Assembly: GCA_016215705.1 (NCBI GenBank)
Contig: JACRIR010000154.1
Span: forward strand, 1 to 25,260
DNA: 25,260 nucleotides
Origin: Candidatus Poribacteria bacterium
GTDB lineage: Bacteria; Abyssobacteria; SURF-5
Direction: 5' to 3'
The notes under the pieces are model-generated. The model was not told where the DNA came from, searched no databases, and saw only the letters and a list, made by a program, of their open reading frames with translations. Below, in pieces: positions 2,924 through 24,961 of this stretch (position 1 is the first letter of the stretch; each line of letters begins with the position of its first letter). The position numbers and the translations under genes were made by a program.

Positions 2924-3001
2924 GTCTCGGGTCTAAAGTCTGGAGTTCGAAGCTTAAAGTTTAAGGTTTAAGGTTTAAGAGTCCAAGGTTCAAGGTCGAG
3001 T
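2924..3001. repeat. Degenerate heptamer array in the MFS leader
   Basis: About eleven consecutive 7-base units can be read on the plus strand: GTCTCGG (2924), GTCTAAA (2931), GTCTGGA (2938), GTTCGAA (2945), GCTTAAA (2952), GTTTAAG three times perfectly (2959-2979), one inserted A (2980), then GTCCAAG (2981), GTTCAAG (2988) and GTCGAGT (2995). The phase is kept apart from the single insertion. The array begins nine bases upstream of the MFS start codon and lies inside its predicted mRNA leader. Copy number changes here could alter expression. It resembles the short heptanucleotide tandem repeats known from some bacteria, such as the STRRs of cyanobacteria. Confidence 0.8.
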
Positions 3002-3072
3002 CATGTGATTGCGTCATGTTGCGCCTCTACGGCCATCCAAAGTGTGCATAGGATACTTCAGATGAGCGCCGC

Positions 3073-3102
3073 ATTCTAACATCATACCGTAAATGGAGTC
3101 AA
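3073..3102 (-). promoter_or_regulatory. Sigma-70-type promoter for the MFS gene
   Basis: Minus strand TTGACT (3097-3102), an 18-base spacer and TAGAAT (3073-3078). Each hexamer matches five of six consensus bases. Predicted start of transcription is near 3066, upstream of the heptamer array, so the array would be transcribed. It stands back to back with the promoter at 3125-3154. Confidence 0.65.
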
Positions 3103-3124
3103 ACTCTGCGGGCTGTGATTCCGT

Positions 3125-3154
3125 TTGCCAACGCAATAAGGGTTTTCGTATAAT
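3125..3154 (+). promoter_or_regulatory. Sigma-70-type promoter for the B12 radical SAM gene
   Basis: TTGCCA (3125-3130), 18 bases, then a perfect TATAAT (3149-3154). Predicted transcription start is near 3161, giving a leader of about 60 bases before the GTG at 3221. The divergent -35 elements of this and the MFS promoter are 22 bases apart, so one regulator could affect both. Confidence 0.7.
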
Positions 3155-3220
3155 GCTTCAGTGGAGGCATTCTCTTGAAATAGAAGTCGAAAAGACCCGG
3201 GATGCAGGAAGGGAAAGAGC

Positions 3221-4651
3221 GTGGCATCGGTCCTCTTTATCCAGAACATATTCTTTGAGTTGATAGGAGTCATGTCAATATCGGCCCATCTGAAACACGC
3301 GGGGCACAATGTGGACCTCATCATTGAGAACGATCCCGGACGGGTCATCCGATATATGCGTGGCAGGAACAGGCCCGACATAGTTGCGTTTTCGGCGGTG
3401 ACAGGACAACACAAGACCGTTTTGGAAATCGCCGGGGCCATAAAGGAGTCGTTCGGTCCCATCCCAATCGTCGTCGGCGGCGCACATCCCACTTTTTTCC
3501 CTGAAATCATCAAGGAGGAGGGCATCGATATCATTTGCCGGGGAGAGGGCGAGGAAGCGATGACGGAACTGGCGGACAGGCTCGATGGAGGGGCTGGTAT
3601 CGCTCAGGGCGGCTCCGAGAACATACAGAACCTTTGGGTGAAGACCGGCGACAAACTGAGCAAGAACGAAGTCAGACCGCTGATTGAAGACCTCGATTCA
3701 CTTCCGTTTCCCGACCGCACAGTCTATGCGAAATATGCCTATCTCGCCGCACATCCGGTAAGACGCTTCATGAGCGGGCGCGGCTGTCCGTATGAATGCA
3801 GTTTTTGCTTTAATCACGCTCAAAAGAAGCTTTATGCCGGGAAGGGAAGGTTTGTGCGCATGCGCAGCGCGCAAAACGTGCTCGATGAGATAACCAAGGT
3901 CGCGCGCGAATATCCGACGATGAAGAGGGTCAAGTTCGAGGATGACACGTTTACTCTGAGCAAACGGTGGACAATGGATTTTCTCGCAAGATATCGGACC
4001 CGGACGGACATGTCTTTCGCTTGTTATTCAAGAGCCGACTGCGTGGACGACGAGCTTGCGCGCGCTCTCAAGGAGGCAGGGTGTGACCGTCTGGATTTTG
4101 GTCTTGAGAGCGGCGACGAGCGGATCAGGAACGAAATCCTGAACAAGAGGCTAACGGATGAGCAAATAATCCGGGCGGCCGAGGTCCTGCGCCGGAACGG
4201 TGTGCCGTTCGGCACAGCAAACATGTTTGGTCTTCCCGGTGAGACATTCGAGGAGGCGCTCAAGACTGTAAACCTGAATCGCAGGATCAGACCTCATGAC
4301 GTATGGGGCGCGGTGTTCCAGCCTTATCCGGGCACCGAGTGCGGTCGGTACGTGCTCGAGAAGGGATACTGCAAGGAATTGAGCGTTGATGACATCAAGA
4401 GCGACTATCAGACCGGCACCCTGCTGGTTCAGAAAGACATCCGAAAAGTCGTGAACCTCCACAAGTTCTTCTATCTTTTTGTCATGTTCCCGATTACGAT
4501 GAAACTGATATTACCCCTGCTTTCGCTCCCGGGTAATCGACTCTTTACGCTCGCCCATAGGATGCTCTATTTCCTGGGTTATGCCACACGGACAAAGAGC
4601 GGCTTTGCGCAGATACTCAAGGACATCCGCGCGGCAATGAAATACCGGTAG
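3221..4651 (+). CDS. B12-binding domain radical SAM protein
   Basis: A 476-residue class B-type radical SAM enzyme. Residues 1-125 form a Rossmann-like cobalamin-binding domain (VLFIQNIFFELIG, then IPIVVGGAHPTFFPE at 81-95 and ICRGEGEEA). The radical SAM core follows, with the [4Fe-4S] motif GRGCPYECSFCFN (C189, C193, C196), a downstream FEDDTF strand, and LDFGLESGDERIRNEILNK (291-309), typical of the family. The C-terminal 120 residues resemble the tail of other B12 radical SAM proteins and contain a hydrophobic stretch near 418-440. Members methylate unreactive carbons or rearrange rings in lipids, pigments and natural products, but neighbours give no hint of the substrate. The GTG start is supported by the purine-rich AGGAAGGGAAAG just upstream. 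It appears monocistronic. Confidence 0.93.
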   Translation: MASVLFIQNIFFELIGVMSISAHLKHAGHNVDLIIENDPGRVIRYMRGRNRPDIVAFSAVTGQHKTVLEIAGAIKESFGPIPIVVGGAHPTFFPEIIKEEGIDIICRGEGEEAMTELADRLDGGAGIAQGGSENIQNLWVKTGDKLSKNEVRPLIEDLDSLPFPDRTVYAKYAYLAAHPVRRFMSGRGCPYECSFCFNHAQKKLYAGKGRFVRMRSAQNVLDEITKVAREYPTMKRVKFEDDTFTLSKRWTMDFLARYRTRTDMSFACYSRADCVDDELARALKEAGCDRLDFGLESGDERIRNEILNKRLTDEQIIRAAEVLRRNGVPFGTANMFGLPGETFEEALKTVNLNRRIRPHDVWGAVFQPYPGTECGRYVLEKGYCKELSVDDIKSDYQTGTLLVQKDIRKVVNLHKFFYLFVMFPITMKLILPLLSLPGNRLFTLAHRMLYFLGYATRTKSGFAQILKDIRAAMKYR

Positions 4652-4672
4652 GTCCTGCGTCTTCCCGCACGC

Positions 4673-4700
4673 TTGACATCGCGGATAGGAATGTTATAGA
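4673..4700 (+). promoter_or_regulatory. Sigma-70-type promoter for the acyl-CoA dehydrogenase gene
   Basis: A perfect -35 TTGACA (4673-4678), a 16-base spacer and TATAGA (4695-4700). Predicted transcription start is near 4707, about 55 bases before the preferred GTG start at 4762. Confidence 0.6.
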
Positions 4701-4735
4701 TTTTACCCGACACCCCATCAAGCCATTAATGCGCA

Positions 4736-4753
4736 ATCACGAGTCAAGAACGG
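4736..4753. repeat. Possible short heptamer tract before acyl-CoA dehydrogenase
   Basis: AATCACG, AGTCAAG and AACGGG can be read as period-7 units immediately before the ribosome site. The 9-mer TCACGAGTC inside it recurs in the heptamer array at 24934-24961. Only two to three units are visible, so this is the weakest member of the set. Confidence 0.3.
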
Positions 4754-4761
4754 GAGGAGTT

Positions 4762-5916
4762 GTGAGCAAAAAACATCCCATTTTTACGGAAGAACATGAA
4801 ATGCTGCGGCATTCGCTGCGCAGTTTCGTCGAGAAAGAGCTTGCGCCGCATGCGGAGGAATGGGAGAAGCAGGGCGGTTTTCCCCATGGCCGGATTTTCA
4901 AACGGATGGGGGAGCTTGGTTTTCTCGGCCTCAACGTGCCCGAGCAATACGGCGGCTCGAGCGCTGATTTTGTCGCCACTATCGTCTTTACAGAAGAGAT
5001 GGCGCATGCCAAATCGGGCGGAGTGGGGGCCTCACTCGGGCTGCACACGAACATTGCGCTGCCATATCTTGCGGAACTCGGGACCGAGGAGCAAAAGCAG
5101 AAGTATCTCGTGCCGGGAGTGAAAGGAGAGATCATCGGGGCGCTTGGAGTAACCGAGCCGGGCGCAGGCTCCGACGTAGGCTCGATCCGCACGAACGCGG
5201 CCAAGGACGGCGATAGCTACGTCATCAACGGAAGCAAGATTTTCATAACCAACGGGGGCATCGCCGACTTTGTCATCCTGGCCGCAAAGACAGATAAAGA
5301 AAGGGGACACGCCGGAATCAGCCTGTTTCTCGTTGACAAGGGAACCCCGGGCTTCACGGTCAGCCGCGATCTCGACAAGCTGGGATGGCGCGCGTGCAAC
5401 ACGGCGGAGCTTGCGTTCGAGGACGTGCGCGTCCCGAAGAGCGCGTTGTTCGGCGAGGAGAATCAGGGTTTCTATAACATCATGATTCATTTTCAGGAGG
5501 AGCGCCTGTACATGGCCGCGGGCGCGGTCTGCGAGGCGGAGCAGGCGTTGGAACTGGCGATGGAATACTCCCGGGAGCGAGTGCAGTTTGGCCGTCCGAT
5601 TGCGAAATTCCAGGTTACTCGTCACAAGATAGCCGACATGGCGACCGAGATCGAGGCAGCGCGGCAACTCGTGTACAATTCGATTCGCTTGCACGTCGAG
5701 AAGGAGCCGTGCCAGGTGGAGGTCGCAATGTGCAAGTTGTTCGCGTGCGAGATGGCCAATCGGGTGATAAACCAGGCGCTCCAGATCTTCGGCGGATACG
5801 GCTACATGATGGAATATCCGATACAGCGACTGTGGCGCGACGCGCGCATCGGTCCCATCGGCGGGGGCACTTCCGAAATACAGAGGGAGATTATCGGCCG
5901 GTTGCTGCTGCAGTAG
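4762..5916 (+). CDS. Acyl-CoA dehydrogenase (IVD/LCAD-type catalytic site)
   Basis: An FAD enzyme that desaturates acyl-CoA thioesters at the alpha-beta position and passes electrons to electron-transfer flavoprotein. An ATG at 4729 is in frame, but GTG at 4762 is preferred because GGGAGGAG lies at 4752-4759; this gives 384 residues, the normal family length. In numbering from 4729, VTEPGAGSDVGSIRT (141-155) and FITNGGIADF are FAD and substrate signatures, and GGYGYMMEYPIQRLWRDARI (355-374) is the C-terminal signature. At the position of the medium-chain enzyme's catalytic Glu (before GT in IGGGTSEIQ) there is Gly. HFQEERLYMA instead supplies Glu258, where isovaleryl- and long-chain enzymes keep their base. 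A branched, aromatic or long acyl substrate is therefore plausible. It precedes the enoyl-CoA hydratase gene. Confidence 0.95.
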   Translation: MSKKHPIFTEEHEMLRHSLRSFVEKELAPHAEEWEKQGGFPHGRIFKRMGELGFLGLNVPEQYGGSSADFVATIVFTEEMAHAKSGGVGASLGLHTNIALPYLAELGTEEQKQKYLVPGVKGEIIGALGVTEPGAGSDVGSIRTNAAKDGDSYVINGSKIFITNGGIADFVILAAKTDKERGHAGISLFLVDKGTPGFTVSRDLDKLGWRACNTAELAFEDVRVPKSALFGEENQGFYNIMIHFQEERLYMAAGAVCEAEQALELAMEYSRERVQFGRPIAKFQVTRHKIADMATEIEAARQLVYNSIRLHVEKEPCQVEVAMCKLFACEMANRVINQALQIFGGYGYMMEYPIQRLWRDARIGPIGGGTSEIQREIIGRLLLQ

Positions 5917-5933
5917 CCGGGCCGGAAGCGGCA

Positions 5934-5976
5934 GCATATTCGGGGGCGCCATGCCGCATGGTGTCCCCGAATATGC
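5934..5976. repeat. REP-like palindrome, complete copy
   Basis: A 20-base-pair stem: left arm 5934-5953 (GCATATTCGGGGGCGCCATG), loop CCG (5954-5956), right arm 5957-5976. All positions pair, two of them as G-U in RNA. It lies between the stop of the acyl-CoA dehydrogenase and the hydratase gene, with no T-run after it, so it is not a standard intrinsic terminator; it could stabilise the upstream mRNA. A related copy with the same CCATG-CCG-CATG core is at 9891-9927, and a fragment is at the left edge. Confidence 0.85.
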
Positions 5977-6059
5977 GCTGCATCGTATCCTCCGAGCAAG
6001 CGCGGGGTTGTTTGAGGCGGCAAGTCCAGCCATTTGATTAAGAGACAAGGAGGAGTTTC

Positions 6060-6854
6060 ATGGCGATTGACTACGTGAAGAAGGACAAGATTGCGTACAT
6101 TACGCTCAACCGGCCTGAAGCGCGTAATGCGCTGGATCCGGACACGCTCGAGACCCTTGGCAAAACGTGGATGGACTTCCGCGACGATTCCTCCGTTCTC
6201 GTGGCGATCATAACCGGCGTCGGCAACTCGTTCTGCGCGGGCGCCGACCTCGGTACGCTGATACCACGCATCACGGGCTCTCCCGATGGTCTCGCGGGCC
6301 TGGTAAAAGGGGAAATGGCCCAGACATTCCAGTCGGCGCTCTTGCGGCAATTCGAGATATGGAAGCCGATTGTCGCGGCAGTCAATGGTTTTTGCATTGC
6401 GGGCGGCCTCGAGATGCTGCTGGGGATGGACATTCGAATCGCCTCCGAAAACGCCTTTTTCGCCATTCAGGAGCCGAGATGGGGCATCTTTCCGGCCGGT
6501 GGGTCCACCGTTCGGCTGCCGAGGCAGGTGCCGTTCTGCAAGGCGATGGAGATTCTTCTGACCGGCGAGAAAATGGACGCAAAAGAGGCCCATCGGATCG
6601 GACTGGTCAATTACGTGGTCCCACAACAAGAATTGATGTCCACCGCCGAGAAGATTGCACGGCGGATTGCTGACAACGGTCCGCTGGCGGTGAGCGCCAT
6701 AAAGAAATCGGTCATCGAGTGTCTGAGCATGTCGCTTCCGGATGCGTTTGAGCACGAGATAGAGCTTGCAACTCCCGTGTTCAAGTCGGAAGACGCGATC
6801 GAGGGGCCGATGGCGTTCATGCAGAAGCGCAAGCCGGAGTTCAAGGGCAGATAA
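6060..6854 (+). CDS. Enoyl-CoA hydratase/isomerase (crotonase family)
   Basis: A 264-residue crotonase-fold enzyme that adds water across the double bond of 2-enoyl-CoA, the step after acyl-CoA dehydrogenation. The CoA and oxyanion-hole segments are FCAGADLG (58-65) and VNGFCIAGGLEMLLGMDIRIAS (108-129). Both catalytic glutamates of true hydratases are present: Glu118 in GGLEM and Glu138 in FAIQEPRWGIFPAGGST, matching Glu144 and Glu164 of rat crotonase. That favours hydratase over a dehalogenase or isomerase. Length is typical and the C-terminal helix region (PLAVSAIKKSV) is intact. AAGGAGG lies about six bases before the ATG. The gene follows acyl-CoA dehydrogenase by 143 bases containing the REP hairpin. 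The acyl substrate is not evident. Confidence 0.94.
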   Translation: MAIDYVKKDKIAYITLNRPEARNALDPDTLETLGKTWMDFRDDSSVLVAIITGVGNSFCAGADLGTLIPRITGSPDGLAGLVKGEMAQTFQSALLRQFEIWKPIVAAVNGFCIAGGLEMLLGMDIRIASENAFFAIQEPRWGIFPAGGSTVRLPRQVPFCKAMEILLTGEKMDAKEAHRIGLVNYVVPQQELMSTAEKIARRIADNGPLAVSAIKKSVIECLSMSLPDAFEHEIELATPVFKSEDAIEGPMAFMQKRKPEFKGR

Positions 6855-6872
6855 GAGCCGGAAGTAAAGATG

Positions 6873-6993
6873 GTGAAAGGCGAAATGGAGGAATAAGGCG
6901 CCAGTCTCGGGTCAATGAGGAAGCCAAGAAGAAACATCGGTTTTCGGCTTCTGGTTTCGGGATAAAACCGGAAACCAGGAACCGGAGGGCCGA
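6873..6993. repeat. Degenerate heptamer arrays with opposed orientation
   Basis: Two sets of 7-base units lie in the spacer after the hydratase. GTGAAAG and GCGAAAT form a pair at 6874-6887, and GTGAAAGGCGAAA recurs exactly near 21139. Then CGGTTTT (6938), CGGCTTC (6945), TGGTTTC (6952), a GGGATAA turn (6959), and AACCGGA (6966), AACCAGG (6973), AACCGGA (6980). The second half is close to the reverse complement of the first, so the RNA can form two competing hairpins: CGGTTTT (6938-6944) with AAAACCG (6964-6970), or CTGGTTTC (6951-6958) with GAAACCAG (6971-6978). No U-tract follows. Confidence 0.65.
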
Positions 6994-7026
6994 AATCAAC
7001 TTTTCCGGAGGTGAGGGAGCACATAC

Positions 7027-7527
7027 ATGAACTGGCGGGAAGAGATCAAGAAGTTCATAGTTCGCAGGAGCGAGACGGGCGATGCGCGCTCATACGTGGA
7101 CGTTAAAGGCATGATTGGCAGGCCCGACCTGCTCTTCTCCGTTGTTGCCGAAATCGGCGAGCTTATCTTGAGGAAGCATTCCGAGATCAAGGCGATCGGT
7201 TCGCACGGCGTCGGCGGCACCTTCCTTATCGGCCCAACCATACTATATGTTTACGACCACTGGTTCAACGTGAACGGCTTTTTCGTGCGGCTTGACGCGA
7301 GAGAGAACGGCTCGCATCATGCCATCGAGGGTTGTGTTGAAAAGGGCTCGCGCGTGCTTCTTATTGACGATCTGATCGAGACCGGCAACTCGAGCCTTAA
7401 GGCACGGGACATCCTGGTAGCTCACGGATGCCAGATGGACGGAATCGTCGTGGTCGTAGACCTCAGCAATGGCGACAATGCATGCACACGCGCCGGCATC
7501 AAAGTCGAGCCGCTGACTACGCTGTGA
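7027..7527 (+). CDS. Phosphoribosyltransferase, orotate PRTase-like
   Basis: A 166-residue type I phosphoribosyltransferase. The PRPP-binding signature RVLLIDDLIETGNSS (109-123) closely follows the orotate phosphoribosyltransferase pattern, and the preceding IEGCVEKG also looks PyrE-like. The protein is shorter than a usual PyrE (about 200 residues or more), mostly in the N-terminal hood, so the base it transfers is uncertain; a divergent orotate enzyme or an orphan PRTase are both possible. A strong ribosome site, GGAGGTGAGGGAG, lies just before the ATG. It follows the hydratase gene on the same strand with a 172-base spacer, so cotranscription with the beta-oxidation genes is possible but unproven. 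Its 3' end faces the Crp/Fnr gene. Confidence 0.8.
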   Translation: MNWREEIKKFIVRRSETGDARSYVDVKGMIGRPDLLFSVVAEIGELILRKHSEIKAIGSHGVGGTFLIGPTILYVYDHWFNVNGFFVRLDARENGSHHAIEGCVEKGSRVLLIDDLIETGNSSLKARDILVAHGCQMDGIVVVVDLSNGDNACTRAGIKVEPLTTL

Positions 7528-7612
7528 GAGAAGTCTTTAGGCGAACCGCACCCCTCGCGCCTGACTGTGCGCTATCTTCGATGCGAGATGTTCCGCCCAT
7601 TCCTTATGGAGT

Positions 7613-8302
7613 TTATGTCAACTCCCGGAGTCCCTCCCGGTCGAGGATCACGAGACGGCGGCCTTCGAGGCGAATCAGTTCCATCTCCTGGAATTTGCGA
7701 AAGGTGCGCGAGACGATCTCGCGAACCGTGCCGATATGAGAGGCAATCTCCTGCTGGCTTTCGTGTAAGTTGACGGCGACGCCTTCCGGGACCTTCACGC
7801 CGCTCTCCTCTGCCAGCCGCAACAGGTAGCCCGCTAACCGCGCGTTCACATCCTTGAGGGAGAGGTTCTCCAGTTGGAGCGTAAACCGACGCAGCCAGTG
7901 GGCGAAATGAGAGAGCAAGCCGAACGCCACTTCAGGATACGCCCGCATGATCTTCTCGAAATCGTTCTTCCTTATCAGCAAGAGTTCCGAGTCCTCGAGT
8001 GTCTGCGCGTTGGCCGGGCACAGCCCGTTGTCGAACGTGGGCACTTCGGCGAAGGTTTCGCCGTTCTTGAACGTATGAAGAATATGCTCCCTGCCGCCGG
8101 GTGACATCTTGTAAACTTTGACGGCGCCTCTTCGGACAAAAAAGAATCCTTCGCAGGGGTCGCTTTCGAAGAAGACCATTTGTCCCTTGTCGAATTGCTT
8201 CCGTCGAGCCACCCGCGCAATCTCTCCGAGCGGCTTGTCGCCGAGCTTCGATAGAAAAGGCACCTGTTTGAGTTCTGCCGCTATCTGTTCGATTTCTGCC
8301 AT
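7613..8302 (-). CDS. Crp/Fnr-family transcriptional regulator
   Basis: A 229-residue regulator with an N-terminal cyclic-nucleotide-like beta-barrel (about 15-120), a dimerisation helix (125-155) and a C-terminal winged helix. The recognition helix reads TVREIVSRTFRKF (192-204). Arg194, Glu195 and Arg199 occupy the places of Arg180, Glu181 and Arg185 of E. coli CRP, predicting a TGTGA half-site. It lacks the cysteine set of FNR (only C50 and C95), so an Fe-S oxygen sensor is unlikely. The phosphate-binding cassette reads GETFAEVPTFDNGLCPANA, without the Arg-Ser that binds cAMP. It therefore probably senses something else, as DNR- and HcpR-like proteins do (heme/NO). It is the last gene of the minus-strand group, 21 bases after the PflX-like gene. 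A candidate target is the operator at 13325-13342. Confidence 0.9.
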   Translation of the reverse strand: MAEIEQIAAELKQVPFLSKLGDKPLGEIARVARRKQFDKGQMVFFESDPCEGFFFVRRGAVKVYKMSPGGREHILHTFKNGETFAEVPTFDNGLCPANAQTLEDSELLLIRKNDFEKIMRAYPEVAFGLLSHFAHWLRRFTLQLENLSLKDVNARLAGYLLRLAEESGVKVPEGVAVNLHESQQEIASHIGTVREIVSRTFRKFQEMELIRLEGRRLVILDREGLRELT

Positions 8303-8323
8303 ATTGCTCTCGCTCTCCCTTTT

Positions 8324-9205
8324 TCAGAATCCGCGGTGAAGCCCTTGCGCTCGAGCCATGTCGAGGGCCTCAAGGTACTCCGTCCGTGTTATGCGACGGT
8401 TAATAAGCCGGTGGTCAAACGCCTTATACACCGGATGATACTGCTCCATTATGTTTACATAGGAGTCCACCGACAGATCTCTTGCGATGAAATGCATGAT
8501 TTCTTCGGTCCCGGCAAGGCCGCCGGGCAGCACAAGGTGTCGAATAATCATGCCGCGCTTCGCTATGCCGCGCTCGTCAATCTCCAGGTCTCCCACCTGG
8601 CGATGCATCTCTTTGAGCGCCTGTTTCATGACGGCAGGGTAGTTGGGCGCGCTGGACAGCTCCATGGCCGACTTCTCGTCGGAATACTTGGCGTCGGGCA
8701 TATAGATGTCCATCAAGCCGTCCAGGAGCTTGAGCGTCTCGATGGAATCATATCCTCCGCAATTGTACACGAGGGGAATCCTGAGTCCGCCGTCATATGC
8801 CGCAGGGAGCGCCTCGAGTATTTGAGCGGCAACGTGGGAGGGCGACACAAAATTGATGTTATGGCAGCCGCGTCGCTGCAGCTCGAGCGTCACGCCGGCG
8901 AGCTCGAGAGCGGTTGTGGGGACGCCATGAAGCAAATGGCTGAGGTCGTAGTTCTGGCAAAAGATGCACCCGAGATTGCATCCGGCGAAGAAAATTGTGC
9001 CCGAGCCGTGCGAGCCGACGAGCGGAGGTTCTTCCCCAAAGTGCGGACCGTAACTCGAAAGGAGCGCCTGCCTGCCGGTTCGACAGAATCCGAGCTCGCC
9101 GTCGATGCGATTGACCCCACAATTCCGCGGGCACAGGTCGCAGCTCTCAAGCCGGGCAAACGCTTTCTCTGCCCTCTCATCGATTTGGCTCTGCGAAAGC
9201 ATCAT
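8324..9205 (-). CDS. Radical SAM protein, PflX-like (COG1313)
   Basis: A 293-residue radical SAM protein related to pyruvate formate-lyase activating enzymes. The cluster motif is [16 protein letters not shown] (C76, C80, C83). The N-terminus adds a conserved cysteine set, CDLCPRNCG followed by GFCR (C22, C25, C29, C41), characteristic of the COG1313 group and possibly a second metal site. [19 protein letters not shown] and IIRHLVLPG match the substrate-barrel signatures of this family. The ATG at 9203-9205 overlaps the TGA of the cyclophilin gene (9202-9204), so the two are translationally coupled; a second ATG follows directly. The biochemical target is unknown; relatives are thought to install glycyl radicals or modify peptides, and no glycyl-radical enzyme is visible nearby. 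Confidence 0.88.
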
Positions 9206-9831
9206 TTCGGTTTGGCGGATTCCTCCTTGACGGAGACTTTCTTCATGACAATCTTCTCGAGCGGACGCCCATCCCTGTCAGTGGGAACGGAACCGATGGA
9301 CTGCACCACGTCCATGCCTTCAATAACCTTGCCGAACACGGTGTAGCCGCCGTCCAGATGCGGCGCGGGCGCCAGGCAAACGTAGAACTGGCTGCCGGCG
9401 CTGTCGGGATCACCCGCGCGGGCCATTGCTACGGTTCCGGCAACATGCTTACGTTTGTTGAATTCCGCCTTTATTGTATAGCCGGGCCCGCCCATGCCCG
9501 TCCCCGTCGGGTCGCCGCCCTGTATGACAAAGCCGGCAATGACCCGATGGAAGATAGTGCCGTCGTAGAAGCCTTTTTTTGCCAGATCAACGAAATTCGC
9601 AACCGTGTTCGGCGCATCCTCCGGAAAAAGCACGAATGAGAAAGTTCCTTTGTTTGTCTCTACAGTAGCAGTCATTGTGTTCCCCTTTGTTTGCGCCGAG
9701 GCCATCATGTCGGCATAGTCCTTGGCAATCGAAGGACGCGGCTTCTCAGGCGGGCGAATTCGATTATTGAGAACTATGAACAAACCCACGACCAGAATGA
9801 TGGCTACGGCAGTAATCAACTTGTCGCGCAT
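9202..9831 (-). CDS. Membrane-anchored cyclophilin-type peptidyl-prolyl isomerase
   Basis: A 209-residue protein with one N-terminal membrane anchor and a cyclophilin domain, so it should fold proteins outside the inner membrane. The reading frame opens at a TTG (9843), but the real start is the ATG at 9831: GGGAGGA lies five bases upstream and would otherwise be coding. The anchor spans about residues 5-21 ([17 protein letters not shown]). The catalytic domain shows [21 protein letters not shown] with the active-site FHR, then [26 protein letters not shown], the substrate pocket of bacterial cyclophilins. The first gene of a TGATG-coupled unit with the PflX-like radical SAM gene and the Crp/Fnr gene. 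The C-terminus is lysine-rich. Confidence 0.93.
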
Positions 9832-9861
9832 GGTTCCTCCCAATAGAATAGTTCCTTATTT

Positions 9862-9878: not shown

Positions 9879-9890
9879 CGTTACTCACCC

Positions 9891-14799: not shown

Positions 14800-14800
14800 A

Positions 14801-14828
14801 AGGCGAAAGGGCAAAGGCGGAAGGGAAC
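14801..14828. repeat. Heptamer array after the octaheme cytochrome
   Basis: Four successive 7-base units directly follow the stop codon: AGGCGAA (14801), AGGGCAA (14808), AGGCGGA (14815), AGGGAAC (14822). The unit sequence differs from the other arrays but the period is the same. The rest of the spacer to 14937 holds a short GACGC-GAAG-GCGTC hairpin and no terminator with a U-run. Confidence 0.6.
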
Positions 14829-18250: not shown

Positions 18251-18260
18251 CAAGTTCTCC

Positions 18261-18281
18261 TCTCACTATCCACTATCCGCT
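18261..18281. repeat. Heptamer array at the rlmN-PAP2 junction
   Basis: Three consecutive units TCTCACT (18261), ATCCACT (18268), ATCCGCT (18275), with ACCAAGC after them as a possible fourth. The array covers the rlmN stop codon (18266-18268) and its last sense codons, so the end of the RlmN protein (VADSG) appears to be encoded by repeat sequence. Confidence 0.45.
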
Positions 18282-19330
18282 ACCAAGCCGGCGTTTCTCA
18301 ACTGGCCGCAGGCGCCCTCGACGTCGAGGCCGCGCGAACGCCTTATAAATGCCAGAACGCCTGCGTTTCTCAGCGTCGCCTGGAATCGCAGAATCCGTTC
18401 TCGCGGGGGCGCCGCGAATCTGCCGGACAAAACCGGGTTACACTCGATCAAGTTGACTTTCGCGTCCAGGGACAGAGATATCTTAGCCAATTTTGCCGCT
18501 TCCGGCAAGGAATCATTCACGTCGCGCATCAGCATATACTCGATCGTCAGCGGAGTGCGCCGATTACGCGCGAGGAGCCGGCACGCATCGAGGGTTTCTT
18601 CGAGCGGATACTTGCGGTTGATCGGCATTAGGCGACTTCGCGTCTTGTTGTCGGTTGCGTGCAGCGAAAGCGCGAGCCGAACCGGTAGATCGTCATCCGC
18701 CAGCCTCCGTATTCCGGGCGCATAGCCTGCCGTTGAAATGGTGACGCGCCTCTTTCCCAATGCAAAACATCTCTCGTGAATGAATATGCGGACGGCCTTC
18801 GCGGTGGCCTCATAATTTGCGAGCGGCTCGCCCATCCCCATCAAGACGATGTTGGTCAGTCTCCCCGCGTCGGGATCGTATTGCGCCCATCGGGCCTGGT
18901 CGACTATTTCGCCCGTGGAAAGATTACGCGCGAGACCGCCTGCGCCGCTGGCGCAAAAGACACAGCCGAATGCGCAGCCGACCTGAGTCGAGACACAGAC
19001 GGTGCTGTGTCCGGCCTCCGGCATAAGAACTGTTTCCACCGTCATTCCGTCACTCAACTCGAAGAGAATCTTCTTCGTGCGATCGCGCTGCGAAACTTGA
19101 ACCTTCAGCGCACGGATGTCAGTGATGAAGAGCTCTTCCGCCAATTCGTCTCGAAGCCGCTTCGGCAGGTTCGTCATCGCGTCGAGCGAGCGCGCATTAT
19201 GCTGGTAGAGCCATTCCGTCACCTGCGCGGAGCGATAGGCCTCGAGTCCTCGTCGGGCCATCAACTCGCTAATCTCCTCGGGCAGCATTCCGAGCAGGTC
19301 AAGCTTTTTTGCGGAATTCTGAGCCATCAT
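18266..19330 (-). CDS. rlmN: Dual-specificity 23S rRNA/tRNA methyltransferase RlmN
   Basis: A radical SAM enzyme that methylates C2 of A2503 in 23S rRNA and A37 in tRNA. The frame is open to a GTG at 19417, but no ribosome site is seen there; the ATG at 19330 (or the next one at 19327) gives about 354 residues, the normal length. Counting from 19330, the cluster motif GCAFGCVFCASG supplies C119, C123 and C126. LMGMGEPLANYE, RRVTISTAGYAPGI and LALSLHATD are family signatures, and GLDVEGACGQL near the end holds Cys341, the residue that carries the transient methyl group. All essential cysteines are present. It is followed closely by the PAP2 gene and preceded by yjbQ on the same strand. Confidence 0.95.
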   Translation of the reverse strand: MMAQNSAKKLDLLGMLPEEISELMARRGLEAYRSAQVTEWLYQHNARSLDAMTNLPKRLRDELAEELFITDIRALKVQVSQRDRTKKILFELSDGMTVETVLMPEAGHSTVCVSTQVGCAFGCVFCASGAGGLARNLSTGEIVDQARWAQYDPDAGRLTNIVLMGMGEPLANYEATAKAVRIFIHERCFALGKRRVTISTAGYAPGIRRLADDDLPVRLALSLHATDNKTRSRLMPINRKYPLEETLDACRLLARNRRTPLTIEYMLMRDVNDSLPEAAKLAKISLSLDAKVNLIECNPVLSGRFAAPPRERILRFQATLRNAGVLAFIRRSRGLDVEGACGQLRNAGLVADSG

Positions 19331-19445
19331 TACCCGCCGGGTCGCCTCTACATTCGCAACCCGGAGAAAGAAGCAGCCGTAGTTCTGAAAGAGACCACTA
19401 AGACATTCAGGCAACACGCCGACAAGAACTAACCCCGGCGTTCCC

Positions 19446-19853
19446 TCACATTTTGGCGGAAATCACGCTAACAAAAACCGACCTTCGGCGGGGACCGTCA
19501 AATTCGCAGAAAAAGACGCCTTGCCATGTGCCCAGCGTAAGGCGTGAATCATGAATAGGGATCATATGTGAAAAACCGATGAGCGCTGATTTTATGTGGC
19601 TGTCGGAGTTTCCTTCTGAATGGCGGTACTGGGGGTCATCTCGTGGCGCCAGCCGCGAAAGCATCCCGAGTATATCCCGGCATACACTCGGGTCGGCGTT
19701 TTCGTTCACCGTCACCCCCGCTGTCGTATGCGGAACGTAGACGATGCAGAAACCCTCATGCACGGCGGATTTCTTGACTACGTTCTCAACAGACCGTGTG
19801 ATGTCTATAAACTCTTCGCGCGATTTGCTGGAAACTTCGATTTCTTCAAACAT
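19446..19853 (-). CDS. yjbQ: YjbQ family protein (UPF0047)
   Basis: A 135-residue protein of the YjbQ/UPF0047 family, some members of which are annotated as secondary thiamine-phosphate synthases. Family signatures are VPHTTAGVTVNENADPSV (about 45-62), HSEGNSDSHIKSALIG (84-99) and LGTWQGVFFCEFDGPRRR (107-124); the conserved histidines in the first two are proposed metal ligands. Length and ends are normal. AAGGAGA lies upstream of the ATG. It precedes rlmN by 115 bases on the same strand. The physiological role is unsettled. Confidence 0.9.
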   Translation of the reverse strand: MFEEIEVSSKSREEFIDITRSVENVVKKSAVHEGFCIVYVPHTTAGVTVNENADPSVCRDILGMLSRLAPRDDPQYRHSEGNSDSHIKSALIGFSHMIPIHDSRLTLGTWQGVFFCEFDGPRRRSVFVSVISAKM

Positions 19854-20090
19854 GAGAATGCGTTCTCCTTACAAATCCCCCTTGCGAATCTGCCCCGCAA
19901 TTCTGCAGTTGCCGACTTATTCGCATACGCATCGTGAAAGCAGGCCGCGAAAAAGCGTGCGAATGAACTGGCGACTGCTAAAGGCAATGCCGGTTAGTCA
20001 ATTGTGGAACAATCTCTTGCCGCCCCCCCTTTTTTTTGCAGAAGGAAGAGGGGCAACGCATCAACCGTCTGATCACTGGCTCAGGGCGCG
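19854..20090. other. Gene-free spacer with C7T8 tract
   Basis: No gene is supported in this 237-base spacer between the patatin stop and the YjbQ start. It has a seven-C run (20023-20029) joined to an eight-T run (20030-20037), preceded by ATTGT-GGA-ACAAT (about 20001-20013). On the plus strand this faintly resembles a terminator, but no plus-strand gene ends here. On the minus strand it becomes an A-run and would not terminate patatin transcription. Confidence 0.4.
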
Positions 20091-20921
20091 TCACGCCAGC
20101 GCAAGCAGCGGATGGTCCCGCAGCACGTTTAGGGCGGCGCGCTCACCCGCTCGAATCGAGCGGTCGGTTTCTCCGAAATCGAACATCCGGCGGCTCGGAA
20201 AATGCGGCTCAATGAGAATCAACGGATACTCGTAGAACTCGCGCAGTTGAAGCTGAAGAATGCGGCGCATCATGAGTCCGTTGCTTTGCAGTATGATGTC
20301 GAGTATCCCTTTCTGCTCGGGCACTTCGTCGGGGCGGCTGAGAGCAGGCAATCCCAGATTCACCGCGATTATCAGGTCGGCGTTGCGCTGGCGGGCTACA
20401 TGAACCGGCACATTTGTGCCGACACCGCCGTCCACATAATATGATCCGCCAATCTTCGAGGGCGGGAAAATGCCGGGAACGGCGCATGAGGCATAGACTG
20501 CCTCGTGGACCGGGACATCGTTAAGGCCCTCGCTCCCCCAGTACACTTCTTCGCCGCGGCTTAGCTCGACCGAGTTGACGAGAAGAGGTTTGTCAAGCAG
20601 TTTGAAACTGTCGATAGGGACAATGGTTTCGATATATTGATGCAGAGTTTCGCCTCGATACAGGCTGGACGCTCCGAGCCCTTTACGGACCATGTGCAGG
20701 AGCCCCAGGTCAAGGATGTCTTCGCTCCGCAACGCGAGCGCATGCCGTTCCATCTCCTCGATGTCCATGCCGCCGGCCGCCAGCGAGCATATAAGGGAGC
20801 CCATGCTCGTCCCTATATACTCATGGATGGGGATTCCGAGCGAGCGAATGGCCCTTAGCGCGCCAATATGAGCCAGACCTCGAAGGCCGCCTCCACTCAA
20901 GACAACCGCCACTTTTCCCAA
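20091..20921 (-). CDS. Patatin-like phospholipase family protein
   Basis: A serine lipid hydrolase of the patatin family. The open frame extends to a TTG at 20990, but that region contains the -10 element of the gene's own promoter. A TTG at 20921, eight bases after GGAGG, is a better start and gives 276 residues. Counting from it, the oxyanion-hole motif is GGGLRG (10-15), the nucleophile is Ser39 in GTSMG, and the catalytic aspartate is Asp164 in VDGGVGTNVP: the full Ser-Asp dyad. There is no signal peptide and no surface-exposed domain, so it is probably a cytoplasmic or inner-membrane-associated esterase similar to RssA/YchK. It is divergent from the aminotransferase-serA operon. Confidence 0.9.
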   Translation of the reverse strand: MGKVAVVLSGGGLRGLAHIGALRAIRSLGIPIHEYIGTSMGSLICSLAAGGMDIEEMERHALALRSEDILDLGLLHMVRKGLGASSLYRGETLHQYIETIVPIDSFKLLDKPLLVNSVELSRGEEVYWGSEGLNDVPVHEAVYASCAVPGIFPPSKIGGSYYVDGGVGTNVPVHVARQRNADLIIAVNLGLPALSRPDEVPEQKGILDIILQSNGLMMRRILQLQLREFYEYPLILIEPHFPSRRMFDFGETDRSIRAGERAALNVLRDHPLLALA

Positions 20922-20980
20922 TCCCGGCGCCTCCGGACAAAGCCCAAACTCATGAACGATATGTTGTTTGCTTTGAGGGA

Positions 20981-21010
20981 AGTATAGCAATCGGCAAAAT
21001 CAAAAGTCAA
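20981..21010 (-). promoter_or_regulatory. Sigma-70-type promoter for the patatin gene
   Basis: Minus strand TTGACT (21005-21010), 18 bases, TATACT (20981-20986). Predicted start near 20974, about 53 bases before the preferred TTG start. It shows that the longer reading frame beginning at 20990 cannot be fully translated from this transcript. Confidence 0.65.
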
Positions 21011-21026
21011 TAGGTTCTCGATGGGC

Positions 21027-21055
21027 TTGACACAGCGCGGCATTTTTGATAATTT
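21027..21055 (+). promoter_or_regulatory. Sigma-70-type promoter for the aminotransferase-serA operon
   Basis: A perfect TTGACA (21027-21032), 17 bases, TAATTT (21050-21055); GATAAT two bases earlier is an alternative -10. Predicted start near 21062, leaving a leader of about 135 bases. Its -35 is only 16 bases from the divergent patatin -35. Confidence 0.6.
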
Positions 21056-21097
21056 AGGTGTTTCTACTTCGGTGTGCAGAGTGCGGACAAGAACGGA

Positions 21098-21175
21098 TCA
21101 GAGACTTTTGTTGAGCAAGAAGCATCCCGGATGAGATTGTGAAAGGCGAAAGTCTCTGAGTAAGAAGTATCTTAC
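21098..21175 (+). promoter_or_regulatory. Structured leader of the aminotransferase-serA operon
   Basis: TCAGAGACTTTTG (21098-21110) pairs with CGAAAGTCTCTGA (21147-21159): 13 base pairs including one G-U. The 36-base loop contains a small CATC-CCG-GATG hairpin. A second hairpin, GTAAGA-AGTA-TCTTAC (21160-21175), stacks directly after it and ends at the AGGAG of the ribosome site region. The arrangement could be a cis-regulatory RNA. It matches no riboswitch class I recognise. Confidence 0.55.
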
Positions 21176-21196
21176 AGGAGAAGAAGAGGAATTGAC

Positions 21197-22330
21197 ATGA
21201 AGAAATATCTGCTTATGGCGCCCGGGCCGACCCCGCTTCCGCCACAAGTGCTTCTGGCAATGGCGAAGCCCATTATTCATCACAGGACGGACGAATTCAA
21301 GGCTATCCTCAAGGAAACAAATGAGGGGCTGCAATACGTTTTTCAGACCGCCAATCCGGTCGTTACGATGTCATCGTCCGGCACGGGCGCGATGGAGGCG
21401 GCTGTTGTCAATACGCTATCGCGCGGCGACTGCGCGCTTGTCGTGAGAGGCGGCAAATTCGGCGAGCGATGGGGCGAACTGTGTGAGGCATATGGCGTTG
21501 AGACGATGATGCTCGACGTCGAGTGGGGGAAGGCCGTCGAGCCGTCTCAGATCGAATCCGCCCTCAAGAAACATCCCGAGATAAAGGCAATATTTACTAC
21601 CCTTTGCGAGACCAGCACATGCGTCCGCAATGACATTGAGGCAATCGGGAAGATTGCATCCGGGCATCAAGCGGTCCTGGTTGTCGACGCGATCAGCGGT
21701 CTCTGCGCGGACGAACTCAAGACTGACGCGTGGGGTGTGGATATTGTGGTGGCAGGCTCGCAGAAGGCGCTTATGCTTCCGCCGGGTCTTGCGTTTGTAA
21801 GCGTCAGCCCGAAGGCGCAGGAGCTGATGAAGAAATCGACGTTACCCAAATTTTACCTTTCATTTGCTAAGGCGCTGAAAAGCCTGGCTAAGACTGACAC
21901 GCCGTTCACCTCCTCCGTCTCGCTGATTTACGGCCTGAAGGAATCGCTTACGCTCCTCAAATCTGAAGGAGTGGATAATGTCGTCAAGCGACACGCCCGT
22001 CTGGCCAAAACGACTCGCGAGGCAGCGCGCGCTCTCGGGCTCGAGCTTTTCTCCAAGGCGCCGTCCAATGTGGCCACGGCCATCTTGATGCCCGCCGGAA
22101 TTGACGCCGACGCGCTCCGAAAGAAGCTTACCCGTGACTACAGCATAACGGTCGCGGGCGGGCAGGATAAATTGAAAGGGAAGATAGTCCGCGTCGCCCA
22201 TTTGGGATATTGCGAAGAGTCCGACGTCATAACGGTGATTTCCGCACTCGAAATGTTGCTGAATCAGTTCGGCCACAAATGCGAGCCGGGGGCGGGCGTG
22301 GCCGCGGCAGAGAAGGTGTTGCTGCAATAA
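21197..22330 (+). CDS. Class V aminotransferase (alanine-glyoxylate/serine-pyruvate type)
   Basis: A 377-residue PLP enzyme of aminotransferase class V. The N-terminal MAPGPTPLPPQVLLAM is typical of the alanine-glyoxylate/serine-pyruvate group. SSSGTGAMEAA (59-69) binds the cofactor phosphate, Asp164 in VVDAISG pairs with the pyridine nitrogen, and Lys190 in AGSQKAL forms the Schiff base. It is followed 38 bases later by serA. Relatives in this arrangement can act as the transaminase of the phosphorylated serine pathway in place of SerC, but serine-glyoxylate activity is equally possible; the sequence does not decide. AGAGGA precedes the ATG. The mRNA leader forms a long hairpin, hinting at post-transcriptional control. 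Confidence 0.92.
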   Translation: MKKYLLMAPGPTPLPPQVLLAMAKPIIHHRTDEFKAILKETNEGLQYVFQTANPVVTMSSSGTGAMEAAVVNTLSRGDCALVVRGGKFGERWGELCEAYGVETMMLDVEWGKAVEPSQIESALKKHPEIKAIFTTLCETSTCVRNDIEAIGKIASGHQAVLVVDAISGLCADELKTDAWGVDIVVAGSQKALMLPPGLAFVSVSPKAQELMKKSTLPKFYLSFAKALKSLAKTDTPFTSSVSLIYGLKESLTLLKSEGVDNVVKRHARLAKTTREAARALGLELFSKAPSNVATAILMPAGIDADALRKKLTRDYSITVAGGQDKLKGKIVRVAHLGYCEESDVITVISALEMLLNQFGHKCEPGAGVAAAEKVLLQ

Positions 22331-22368
22331 TCCAGAATCCGGAATAAGTTGCAGGAGAAAGTAACGAG

Positions 22369-23949
22369 ATGAAGATACTGGTTAGCGATCCTCTCGCGAA
22401 ACAGGGGATCGAAGTCATCAAGCGGCAAAGCGACTTCGATGTGGATGTCAAGACAAAGATGTCCCGCGAGGAATTGCTTCAGACAATAGGCGAATATGAT
22501 GCTCTCATAGTCCGAAGCGAGACGAAGGTGACCGAAGAAGTCATCGAAGCAGGTAAGAAGCTTCGGGTCATCGGCCGGGCGGGTGTGGGAATCGATAATA
22601 TAAACGTTCAGGCCGCCACCAAGCGGGGCGTGATTGTTCTCAATGCTCCCGGCGGCAACACTATCTCGACCGCGGAACACACCATTTCGATGATGCTGTC
22701 GCTCACACGGAATATTCCGCAGGCCTGCTCATCCCTGAAAAACCGTAAATGGGAACGCAAACAGTTCACGGGCGCGGAGGTTTACGGCAAGACCCTTGGC
22801 ATAATCGGTCTCGGCCGCATCGGCAGCGAGGTCGCACGCCGGGCGCACGCGCTCGGGATGAAACTGCTGGGCTATGACCCGATTCTTCTGCCGGACCGAG
22901 CCCGCGCGATCAACGTCGAGCCGGTAGACCTGGACACTCTTGTGAGCAAGTCGGACTTTATCACGGTGCACGTGCCGATGAGCGAACAGACGAGAAATAT
23001 GCTCTCTGTGCGCCAGTTCGAGATGATGAAGCAGGACGTGCGCATCATCAACTGCGCCCGTGGCGGCATCGTCAACGAGGCCGCTCTCCTCGACGCGCTC
23101 AAGTCGGGAAAAGTCGCGGGCGCCGCGCTCGACGTGTTTGAGAAGGAGCCGCCCCTCGAAAGTCCCCTCCTTGATATGGATTCGGTCATCGTTACGCCGC
23201 ACCTGGGCGCATCAACCGAAGAGGCGCAAGTGAACGTCGCGTGCGATGTCGCCGATCAGGTGGTCAGGGCCCTGCGCGGGGAGCCGGTTCCCTTTGCCGT
23301 GAATGTCCCGCCGATTGATCCCGAGATATACAGGGAGCTCAAACCGTACCTCGAGATGGCGGAGAAGTTGGGCCGGTTCCAGGCGCAATATCCTCAGAGC
23401 GCCGTGCGAGAGTTGGTCGTCGAGGTCTTCGGTGATATCGAGGAGTTCGACGCGCGCCCGATCAGGACAGCGGTGATAAAGGGATTTCTCGAAGTGTTCC
23501 TGCAGGAGAACGTCAATTATGTGAACGCGCCGGTACTCATCGCCGAGCGAAAGATTGCGGTAACCGAACGCAAGGGACAGATGCTGAAGGATTACGCCAA
23601 TCTGATAACGGTCCGGGCGATCACTGACAGGGGCGAGTGTTCGGTGGCAGGCACGCTGTTCAGCCGCACAACGCCGCGAATTGTCCGACTGAATGATTTC
23701 CACCTCGATGCTTTGCCCGAAGGTGTCGTGCTCATATGTCTCAATGAGGACAAGCCGGGCATCATTGGAAACCTCGGGACACTCATGGCGAAGAACAGCA
23801 TCAACATTGCCGCAATGACGCTCGGCAGGACTCACCGGGGAGGAGCGGCCGCAACGATTCTGAATCTGGATGCGGAACTGGGCGCCGACCTCATCGAACA
23901 GGTGAAAAAAATCCAGCACATAAATGATGCGAGAGTGGTGAAACTGTGA
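22369..23949 (+). CDS. serA: D-3-phosphoglycerate dehydrogenase SerA (long form with ACT domain)
   Basis: A 526-residue enzyme that oxidises 3-phosphoglycerate to 3-phosphohydroxypyruvate with NAD, the committed step of serine synthesis. The NAD-binding site is GIIGLGRIGSEVARRA (144-159). The catalytic residues are Arg231 (NCARGG), Glu260 (DVFEKEPP) and His278 (TPHLGAST). An intervening ASB domain (about 310-440) and a C-terminal ACT domain (LICLNEDKPGIIGNLGTLMA, then SINIAAMTLGR) make it the long, potentially serine-inhibited type. GCAGGAG lies upstream of the ATG. It sits between the aminotransferase and galE; its TGA overlaps the GTG start of galE by three of four bases. Confidence 0.97.
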   Translation: MKILVSDPLAKQGIEVIKRQSDFDVDVKTKMSREELLQTIGEYDALIVRSETKVTEEVIEAGKKLRVIGRAGVGIDNINVQAATKRGVIVLNAPGGNTISTAEHTISMMLSLTRNIPQACSSLKNRKWERKQFTGAEVYGKTLGIIGLGRIGSEVARRAHALGMKLLGYDPILLPDRARAINVEPVDLDTLVSKSDFITVHVPMSEQTRNMLSVRQFEMMKQDVRIINCARGGIVNEAALLDALKSGKVAGAALDVFEKEPPLESPLLDMDSVIVTPHLGASTEEAQVNVACDVADQVVRALRGEPVPFAVNVPPIDPEIYRELKPYLEMAEKLGRFQAQYPQSAVRELVVEVFGDIEEFDARPIRTAVIKGFLEVFLQENVNYVNAPVLIAERKIAVTERKGQMLKDYANLITVRAITDRGECSVAGTLFSRTTPRIVRLNDFHLDALPEGVVLICLNEDKPGIIGNLGTLMAKNSINIAAMTLGRTHRGGAAATILNLDAELGADLIEQVKKIQHINDARVVKL

Positions 23950-24929
23950 AAACAATTCTTGTCACCGGTGGCGCCGGTTACATAGGAAGCCACGTCGTCA
24001 AAGAGTTGCTGCGGCAGGGCTATGATACTGTGACGGTTGATAGCCTTGTCACCGGACATCGTGAATCCGTGCTGGGCGGCGAATTGGTCGAGGCCGACCT
24101 TCGGGACCTCACCGCCCTTCGAAGCGTATTCGCGAAGTATCCCGTCGACGCAGTCATGCATTTTGCCGCTTCGTGCTATGTCGGCGAATCAGTCAAAGTC
24201 CCGATGAAATACTACGAGAACAATGTTCTTTCCGGCCTGAACCTGCTTGCGGCGATGGCTGAGGCGAGCGTTCGGCACATCATTTTCTCGTCCACTGCGG
24301 CAGTGTACGGCAATCCTCTTCAGATACCTATTCCCGAAGAGCATCCGCAACTGCCCATCAATCCCTACGGCCAGACCAAGTCCCTCTTCGAGGACATTCT
24401 CCGGAGTCACGAACGGTTGCACGGCATCCGCCACGTCGCTCTCCGCTATTTCAACGCGGCGGGGACCGATCCGGAAGGCGAGATCGGAGAAATACACGAT
24501 CCGGAAACGCATCTTATACCGATTGCTCTGGACGTCGCGCTTGGCCGCATTTTGCACATCGAGATTTTCGGCTCCGACTATAGAACGCCCGACGGCACTT
24601 GTATCCGGGACTTCATCCATGTTTGCGACCTCGCCGACGCGCACATCCGCTGCCTGCGATACCTGTTGGACGGCGGCCCGAGCAACTCCTACAATCTCGG
24701 CGCGGGGCGCGGGTACTCGGTGAAGCAGGTGATAGATGCCGCCGAGCGCGTGAGCGGTCGAGTCATACCGCGCATCAACTCGCCTCGCCGGCCGGGCGAT
24801 CCGCCGGAACTTGTCGCCGGCGCCGCGAAAATAAGGAATGAACTGGGATGGGAGCCCCGACATTCATCCATCGAGGAAATACTCACGACGGCCTGGCAAT
24901 GGCAGAAGAAACTGCGCGGCCGAAAATAG
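23946..24929 (+). CDS. galE: UDP-glucose 4-epimerase
   Basis: A 327-residue extended short-chain dehydrogenase that interconverts UDP-glucose and UDP-galactose (or the N-acetyl forms), feeding surface polysaccharide synthesis. The NAD motif is VTGGAGYIGSH (6-16). The catalytic set is SSTAAVYG (115-122) with Tyr141 and Lys145 in NPYGQTKSLFED. Further GalE signatures are LRYFNAAGTDPEGEIGE and DGTCIRDFIHVCDLADAH. Length is normal. The GTG start overlaps the serA stop, so it is translationally coupled to SerA, an unusual metabolic pairing that may simply reflect operon growth. A truncated membrane glycosyltransferase-like gene follows. Confidence 0.95.
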   Translation: MKTILVTGGAGYIGSHVVKELLRQGYDTVTVDSLVTGHRESVLGGELVEADLRDLTALRSVFAKYPVDAVMHFAASCYVGESVKVPMKYYENNVLSGLNLLAAMAEASVRHIIFSSTAAVYGNPLQIPIPEEHPQLPINPYGQTKSLFEDILRSHERLHGIRHVALRYFNAAGTDPEGEIGEIHDPETHLIPIALDVALGRILHIEIFGSDYRTPDGTCIRDFIHVCDLADAHIRCLRYLLDGGPSNSYNLGAGRGYSVKQVIDAAERVSGRVIPRINSPRRPGDPPELVAGAAKIRNELGWEPRHSSIEEILTTAWQWQKKLRGRK

Positions 24930-24933
24930 ATAG

Positions 24934-24961
24934 AAATCACAAGTCACGAGTCGCGAGTCCA
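24934..24961. repeat. Heptamer array after galE
   Basis: Four in-phase units fill the spacer between galE and the next gene: AAATCAC (24934), AAGTCAC (24941), GAGTCGC (24948), GAGTCCA (24955). The consensus resembles RAGTCRC. The next gene starts at 24966, so the array takes the place of a normal ribosome site. Confidence 0.6.

What the first reader, a model, noticed from the sequence alone, without database searches (positions are those of the whole stretch)
2924..24961. A shared period-7 architecture in unrelated spacers
Arrays at 2924-3001, 6873-6993, 14801-14828, 18261-18281 and 24934-24961, with weaker traces at 4736-4753 and 21139-21152, all have period 7, all lie at gene boundaries, yet have different unit sequences. 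GTGAAAGGCGAAA is shared by the 6873 and 21139 sites, and TCACGAGTC by the 4736 and 24934 sites. A common generating process (slippage, a guided polymerase, or a replicating seed) fits better than separate chance. Period-7 tandem repeats (STRRs) are known in cyanobacteria, but a set of arrays with independent sequence and common period is not something I can name.
Basis: partly seen in the sequence, partly recalled or inferred. Interest (0 to 1): 0.62.

Follow-up and report, generated by a model that had tools for sequence, protein, structure and literature searches.

The report
Outward-pointing seven-base repeats at gene edges
The spacers between genes of this uncultured deep-subsurface bacterium really are peppered with short repeats of period seven; this is a known but unexplained kind of bacterial repeat, and here its G-rich strand almost always points away from the neighbouring gene, a rule that also held when I tested it in a cyanobacterium and that constrains how such repeats are made.

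Summary
In 0.83 Mb sampled from the host genome (a 5.5 Mb MAG related to Candidatus Abyssubacteria), intergenic DNA has 54 lag-7 segments against 0 in Markov controls and 0-18 at other non-multiple lags. Of the seven listed sites, three are sound arrays (2924, 18261, 24934), two are weak or composite (6873, 14801) and two are not arrays (4736, 21139). The units are not independent: most belong to a few recurring families (AAAGGCG, AAACCAT, AAAATCC, AATGATG). Arrays are about five- to tenfold rarer in two sister genera, and two array spacers are short and array-free in relatives, so they are lineage-recent. This is the known class of heptanucleotide long simple-sequence repeats. The surprise is polarity. 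Within 20 nt of a gene edge the strand running 5'->3' away from the gene is G-rich in 27 of 28 skewed arrays, at stops and starts alike. It held in an independent test on a Kovacikia plasmid (26:5 within 60 nt; 13 of 13 opposed neighbours converge). Rehm et al. 2015 reported the same placement for quadruplex-forming heptads; here most units have only GG. I favour polar growth of a G-rich 3' end leaving the gene edge, but selection on leaders and trailers predicts nearly the same.

The parts
2924..3001 (+). Degenerate heptad array (GTTTAAG/GTTCAAG/GGGTCTC type), just upstream of the minus-strand MFS gene 1608-2915; G-rich strand runs away from that gene
   Evidence: Lag-7 score 17, 0 of 4000 simulations reach it; a related 53-nt stretch at C96, 81% identity. 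In G001 the MFS and acyl-CoA dehydrogenase genes are adjacent with a short array-free spacer
3221..4651 (+). B12-binding radical SAM gene between the array and the acyl-CoA dehydrogenase gene; absent between the orthologous neighbours in G001
   Evidence: Pfam Radical_SAM and B12-binding; synteny
6855..7026 (+). 172-nt spacer after enoyl-CoA hydratase; 55 nt in SURF_17. Holds GTGAAAGGCGAAA after the stop, then convergent heptads GGTTTTC.GGCTTCT.GGTTTCG / AAAACC.GGAAACC.AGGAACC forming a hairpin
   Evidence: Spacer lengths; RNA fold -54.1 kcal/mol, z -2.7
14800..14828 (+). Short AAAGGCG-family array directly after the cytochrome stop codon (TAA 14797-14799), purine-rich on the coding strand
   Evidence: Sequence; score 6, P=0.0075
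18264..18282 (-). Array GGATAGT(n) overlapping the 3' end of rlmN, whose stop codon TAG is part of the array
   Evidence: RlmN_N and Radical_SAM
21137..21152 (+). Single dictionary word GTGAAAGGCGAAAG upstream of an aminotransferase gene; not an array
24937..24959 (+). Array TCACRAG(n) between the galE stop (24929) and the next start; little G/C skew
   Evidence: Score 10, 0 of 4000 simulations reach it; array-free at the orthologous place in G001

Best explanation
These are degenerate heptanucleotide simple-sequence arrays (the LSSR/STRR class) that expanded recently in this lineage. Shown: they are intergenic, abut gene edges (stop codons above all), use a few recurring units with a conserved core and variable positions 5 and 7, and are polar, the strand that runs 5'->3' away from the gene being G-rich; where two arrays of opposite polarity share a spacer they usually converge. 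Inferred mechanism: an array grows one way, by repeated 7-nt out-of-register re-priming of a G-rich 3' end that leaves a gene edge into a spacer, for example the resected 3' ends of a break in the spacer after trimming back to the gene edge. The two ends then meet, which leaves converging arrays as a scar. Growth into a gene is purged. Some composite stretches are later copied to other spacers. I hold class membership at about 0.9 and this growth mechanism at about 0.35.
For: Lag-7 excess 54:0. Arrays 62 in 808 kb of the host against 4 in 333 kb and 3 in 392 kb of sister genera. Array-free orthologous spacers: 172 against 55 nt in SURF_17 and 254 against 28 nt in G002. 17 of 55 arrays lie within 20 nt of a stop codon against 4.3 expected when each is moved at random within its spacer (0 of 1000 reach it). 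Outward G-rich: 27:1 at 20 nt or less, 69:17 overall (P=1.3e-8), against a non-array baseline of 39% to 22% at 3' ends and 20% to 45% at 5' ends; present in the purine, GGAT and 'other' families, weaker in GGTT. Position in spacer: G-rich-top median 0.14, C-rich-top 0.86, P=5e-8. Kovacikia, sampled to test the rule: 17:3 at 20 nt or less, 9:2 at 21-60 nt, 7:8 beyond; opposed neighbours 13 convergent, 0 divergent, P=0.0002, 10 of 13 with different units. Host 6:3, the three exceptions with gaps of 251, 543 and 795 nt. Arrays inside predicted ORFs near an end do not hide violators (5:2). The same placement is published for Xcc, Xac and Nostoc, with 70-75 convergent pairs in the xanthomonads (PMC4692102).
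Against: No break, polymerase or growth event was observed. The rule '3' side G-rich, 5' side C-rich on the coding strand' is the same statement as 'G-rich outward', so selection on mRNA leaders and trailers predicts nearly the same near edges. A mixed set of 33 foreign arrays did not show it (12:18; crude gene calls). Other lags lean the same way (host 15:7, Kovacikia 11:4 within 60 nt). Copying of composites makes the arrays non-independent, so the P-values are optimistic. Ku is in the array-rich host and in array-poor G002, so it does not track arrays.
Confidence: 0.5

Rival explanations
1. Selection on transcripts sorts randomly oriented slippage arrays: G-rich units in a 5' leader mimic Shine-Dalgarno sequences or fold, C-rich units in a trailer are harmful in another way, so only 'G-rich outward' arrays survive near genes. 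Slippage is ordinary and non-polar.
For: Polarity is strongest within 20 nt and in Kovacikia fades beyond 60 nt. Slippage is the published idea for the abundance of heptads (PMC4679880).
Against: Needs two unrelated selective reasons. In the host, arrays more than 150 nt upstream of starts are still 21:7. Five of 26 members of the Kovacikia convergent pairs break the nearest-edge rule yet keep the convergent order. It does not by itself explain crowding at stop codons.
Confidence: 0.3
2. Small mobile or copied elements: heptad arrays travel as parts of REP-like composite cassettes inserted after stop codons in one orientation.
For: Composite stretches recur at unrelated genes: a GAAAGGGG...GGGGAA array followed by a GATTGCTTCGCTCCGCTCGCAATGAC-like hairpin at C51 and C52; GTCATTCTGAGCGAAGCGAAGAATCTC followed by AATCCAAAATCC at C38 and C46. 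REP-like palindromes are abundant (up to 40 copies) and three Y1_Tnp genes are present.
Against: Many arrays have unrelated outer flanks. Kovacikia arrays are mostly of different units, which copying cannot give. No target duplication or fixed array end was seen in the few spacers compared.
Confidence: 0.2
3. A dedicated template-guided enzyme, a telomerase-like or DRT-type reverse transcriptase, writes heptads onto DNA ends.
For: G-rich strand at the outward 3' end is telomere-like geometry.
Against: The only PF00078 proteins found are a group II-intron-like RT and a DGR RT with bAvd and an FGE-domain neighbour; against PADLOC both match a general RT model best. Unit diversity in Kovacikia argues against one template.
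Confidence: 0.05
4. Binding sites for a protein that needs a 7-nt (21 bp, two helical turns) spacing, kept for gene regulation, as proposed for TAACTGA repeats.
For: Conserved core and variable positions 5 and 7; location at gene edges.
Against: Many different units in one genome, mainly at 3' ends; no functional theme was noted for similar heptads (PMC4692102).
Confidence: 0.1

Closest known systems
Heptanucleotide long simple sequence repeats, LSSR (Mrazek et al. 2007, as described in PMC4679880)
   Same: Units of 5-11 nt in excess over chance, heptads the most abundant class, phylogenetically scattered
   Different: The summary read here does not describe gene-edge polarity or convergent pairs; the original paper was not read
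GGGAATC / (GGGANTN)n repeats of Xanthomonas and GGGGA(C/T)T repeats of Nostoc (Rehm et al. 2015, PMC4692102)
   Same: Period 7, intergenic, 0-50 bp from the ORF, upstream on the non-coding and downstream on the coding strand, overlap of stop codons, convergent pairs, variable positions 5 and 7
   Different: Those are one G-quadruplex-forming unit per genome; here there are several unit families, most with only GG, and converging arrays with different units
Cyanobacterial STRRs
   Same: Several heptad families in one genome
   Different: Named STRR unit sequences were not compared here
TAACTGA direct repeats (MacGregor 2015, PMC4679880)
   Same: Intergenic heptads at gene edges, phylogenetically scattered
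   Different: One unit, mostly just upstream of starts; here several units, mostly after stops, and the TAACTGA unit was not seen among the host arrays
Heptanucleotide elements of Geobacter metallireducens (PMC2700814)
   Same: Multicopy tandem heptads
   Different: Described as 49 GGACCGG-type elements found within and between genes, and other classes as paired putative regulator sites

Membership tests
Heptanucleotide LSSR | Tandem runs longer than chance, heptads the dominant length | tested here: met
Heptanucleotide LSSR | Mostly outside coding regions | tested here: met
   92 intergenic arrays, 5 inside predicted ORFs
Heptanucleotide LSSR | Copy number changes by slippage between strains | not testable with these tools
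   No second strain of the species was held
Rehm G-rich heptads | Within 0-50 bp of an ORF, G-rich strand away from it, including stop-codon overlap | tested here: met
Rehm G-rich heptads | Runs of at least GGG able to form a quadruplex | tested here: not met
   Commonest units AAGGCGA, GGTTCAT, GGTTTAT, GGATTTT, GAATGAT
Rehm G-rich heptads | Positions 1-4 and 6 conserved, 5 and 7 variable | tested here: inconclusive
   GGTT family mismatches by position 27,1,2,14,64,11,20; AAGG family 4,3,9,4,37,12,24: 5 and 7 are the hottest or near it, but position 1 of GGTT also varies
Cyanobacterial STRR | Named heptad unit sequences | not tested
   Known to me from memory only
TAACTGA repeats | Unit TAACTGA, mainly upstream of starts | tested here: not met
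   Array units
REP/RAYT elements | Palindromic dispersed element | tested here: not met
   The arrays are direct repeats; REP-like palindromes are separate, though sometimes adjacent
RT-written repeat (telomerase- or DRT-like) | A fitting reverse transcriptase in the genome | tested here: not met
   Only group II-intron-like and DGR RTs found; the MAG is 92% complete

The most novel reading that the evidence does not exclude
Across phyla and whatever the unit sequence, bacterial heptad arrays are written outward from gene edges with the G-rich strand as the 3'-growing strand, and opposed arrays in one spacer converge. They would be scars of a general polar, end-driven repeat synthesis, a bacterial analogue of telomere-like end extension, rather than of non-polar slippage or of quadruplex function.
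Probability: 0.25. Interest if true: 0.8.

Novelty: new member of a known kind. Interest (0 to 1): 0.5.

Why it matters
Why heptads dominate long bacterial repeats has been open since 2007. A sharp polarity that ignores transcription direction and unit sequence, seen in an Abyssubacteria-like genome and a cyanobacterium and published for Xanthomonas and Nostoc, turns that into a testable question about how the repeats grow. It also weakens the quadruplex explanation for the placement, because most units here cannot form one.

Tried and rejected
Reverse transcriptase as generator: only ordinary types found. Ku end-joining as the distinguishing factor: does not track arrays. BLAST of two arrays against plasmids: nothing; AAAGGCG found in 4 records. 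Literature search by repeat sequence: nothing relevant. Rfam on the window: no match. Cross-genome search: AAAATCC arrays in 6 of 192 genomes, reversed-pattern control 0; AAACCAT in 3 of 192, control in 1, so a cross-phylum unit preference is suggestive only. Polarity in mixed foreign loci: not seen. Replication-strand bias as the cause: rejected because both orientations occur in one spacer. Gene-caller bias: checked, does not hide violators.

Full report
What is there. The window is contig C78 of a 5.47 Mb, 270-contig MAG, 92% complete. Its multihaem cytochrome is 77% identical to that of Candidatus Abyssobacteria SURF_17 and its enoyl-CoA hydratase 90%, so the host is most likely an Abyssubacteria relative (inference). 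Three of the seven listed sites are statistically sound period-7 arrays, two are weak or composite and two are not arrays.

Is it more than chance. I sampled 60 further contigs, 0.83 Mb with the window, called genes with a hexamer model and counted lag-k self-matches. Lag 7 gave 54 intergenic segments, Markov controls 0, and other non-multiple lags 0-18. Density is 62 in 808 kb here against 4 in 333 kb and 3 in 392 kb in two other genera of the same family.

Anatomy. Seventy-nine segments of score 9 or more fall mainly into AAAGGCG/AAAGGGG/AAGGAGC, AAACCAT/AAACCGT, AAAATCC/AATCCGC and AATGATG families. Arrays are mosaics: in the GGTT family adjacent units differ mostly at position 5 (64 of 139 mismatches), with 118 transitions to 21 transversions; in AAGG at positions 5 and 7. 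Such unevenness is not what slippage plus uniform point mutation gives. Some arrays sit in repeated composites with REP-like hairpins.

Recent origin. The spacer 6855-7026 is 172 nt here and 55 nt in SURF_17; C51 5754-6008 is 254 nt against 28 nt in G002; the array 2924-3001 and the radical SAM gene 3221-4651 sit between genes that are neighbours in G001. The direction (gain here rather than loss there) is inferred from the rarity of arrays in the relatives.

Polarity. 17 of 55 arrays lie within 20 nt of a stop codon, 4.3 expected. Reading away from the nearest gene edge, the array is G-rich in 27 and C-rich in 1 at 20 nt or less, and 69:17 overall. Both 3' and 5' edges obey (within 60 nt 27:3 and 12:3). 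Array-free spacer shows only a weak tendency at 3' ends and the opposite at 5' ends. G-rich-top arrays sit at median 0.14 of the spacer, C-rich-top at 0.86.

Independent test. A Kovacikia minuta plasmid, found because it holds an AAAGGCG array, was then sampled for 500 kb. It has the same lag-7 peak (64), mostly with different units from array to array, and the same polarity: 26:5 within 60 nt. Thirteen of 13 opposed neighbouring arrays converge, ten of them with different units. The test was on unannotated DNA with my own gene calls.

Prior art. Rehm et al. 2015 describe, for GGGAATC repeats of two Xanthomonas and GGGGA(C/T)T of Nostoc, location within 0-50 bp of the ORF, upstream on the non-coding and downstream on the coding strand, overlap with stop codons, variable positions 5 and 7 in Xanthomonas, and 70-75 convergent pairs. 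I found the polarity here before reading this. They discuss it in terms of quadruplexes; most units here cannot form them, so the placement is not a quadruplex property alone. Mrazek's slippage idea for heptads is quoted in PMC4679880 and in the Rehm discussion.

Mechanism. Shown: location, polarity, convergence, lineage recency, position-specific unit variation. Inferred: one-way growth of a G-rich 3' end leaving the gene edge, with two ends meeting in the spacer. The main rival is selection on leaders and trailers, which near the edges makes almost the same prediction. Against the rival are host arrays more than 150 nt upstream (21:7) and pair members that break the nearest-edge rule but keep the convergent order. 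Neither is conclusive. Reverse transcriptases present are of ordinary kinds, and Ku does not track arrays.

Limits. My gene calls are simple; the host sample is 15% of the genome; copied composites make arrays non-independent; the mixed foreign set showed no polarity (12:18); other lags lean weakly the same way; the gap observation for the three host exceptions is post hoc.

Noticed in passing
Host sample, for example C42, C51, C22: Abundant REP-like palindromes, such as GAAAATCGGGGACACGATGCCGCATCGTGTCCCCGATTTTC (core 14-mer 40 copies) and TGTCATTCTGAGCGAAGCGAAGAATCTC (30 copies), nearly absent from two sister genera; three Y1_Tnp genes are present.
   Followed up: partly
L123 (G000 C52:35394-39029): A diversity-generating retroelement: FGE-sulfatase-domain gene, bAvd, reverse transcriptase.
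   Followed up: no
L264 1506-1605; L265 1286-1542: Long, nearly perfect AAAGGCG (CCTTTCG) arrays, about 14 copies in Pantoea agglomerans and some 36 in a Burkholderia multivorans record: the same unit as in the host.
   Followed up: partly
Kovacikia L268 32511-32700, L270 25239-25360, L276 1868-2080: Heptad arrays apparently inside long open frames, again in G-rich then C-rich order along the coding strand; may be real in-frame arrays or gene-call artefacts.
   Followed up: no
L207-L230 (G030), L235 (G189), L236 and L244 (G146): Unrelated genomes hold the same AAAATCC and AAACCAT units, the latter with the same GGTTCAT/GGTTTAT alternation in G189.
   Followed up: partly
window 3221-4651: B12-binding radical SAM gene inserted beside the strongest array, between genes adjacent in G001.
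   Followed up: no
L072 17826-17946: A 17-copy ACCAGTC/ACGAATC mosaic array in a Deltaproteobacteria MAG.
   Followed up: no
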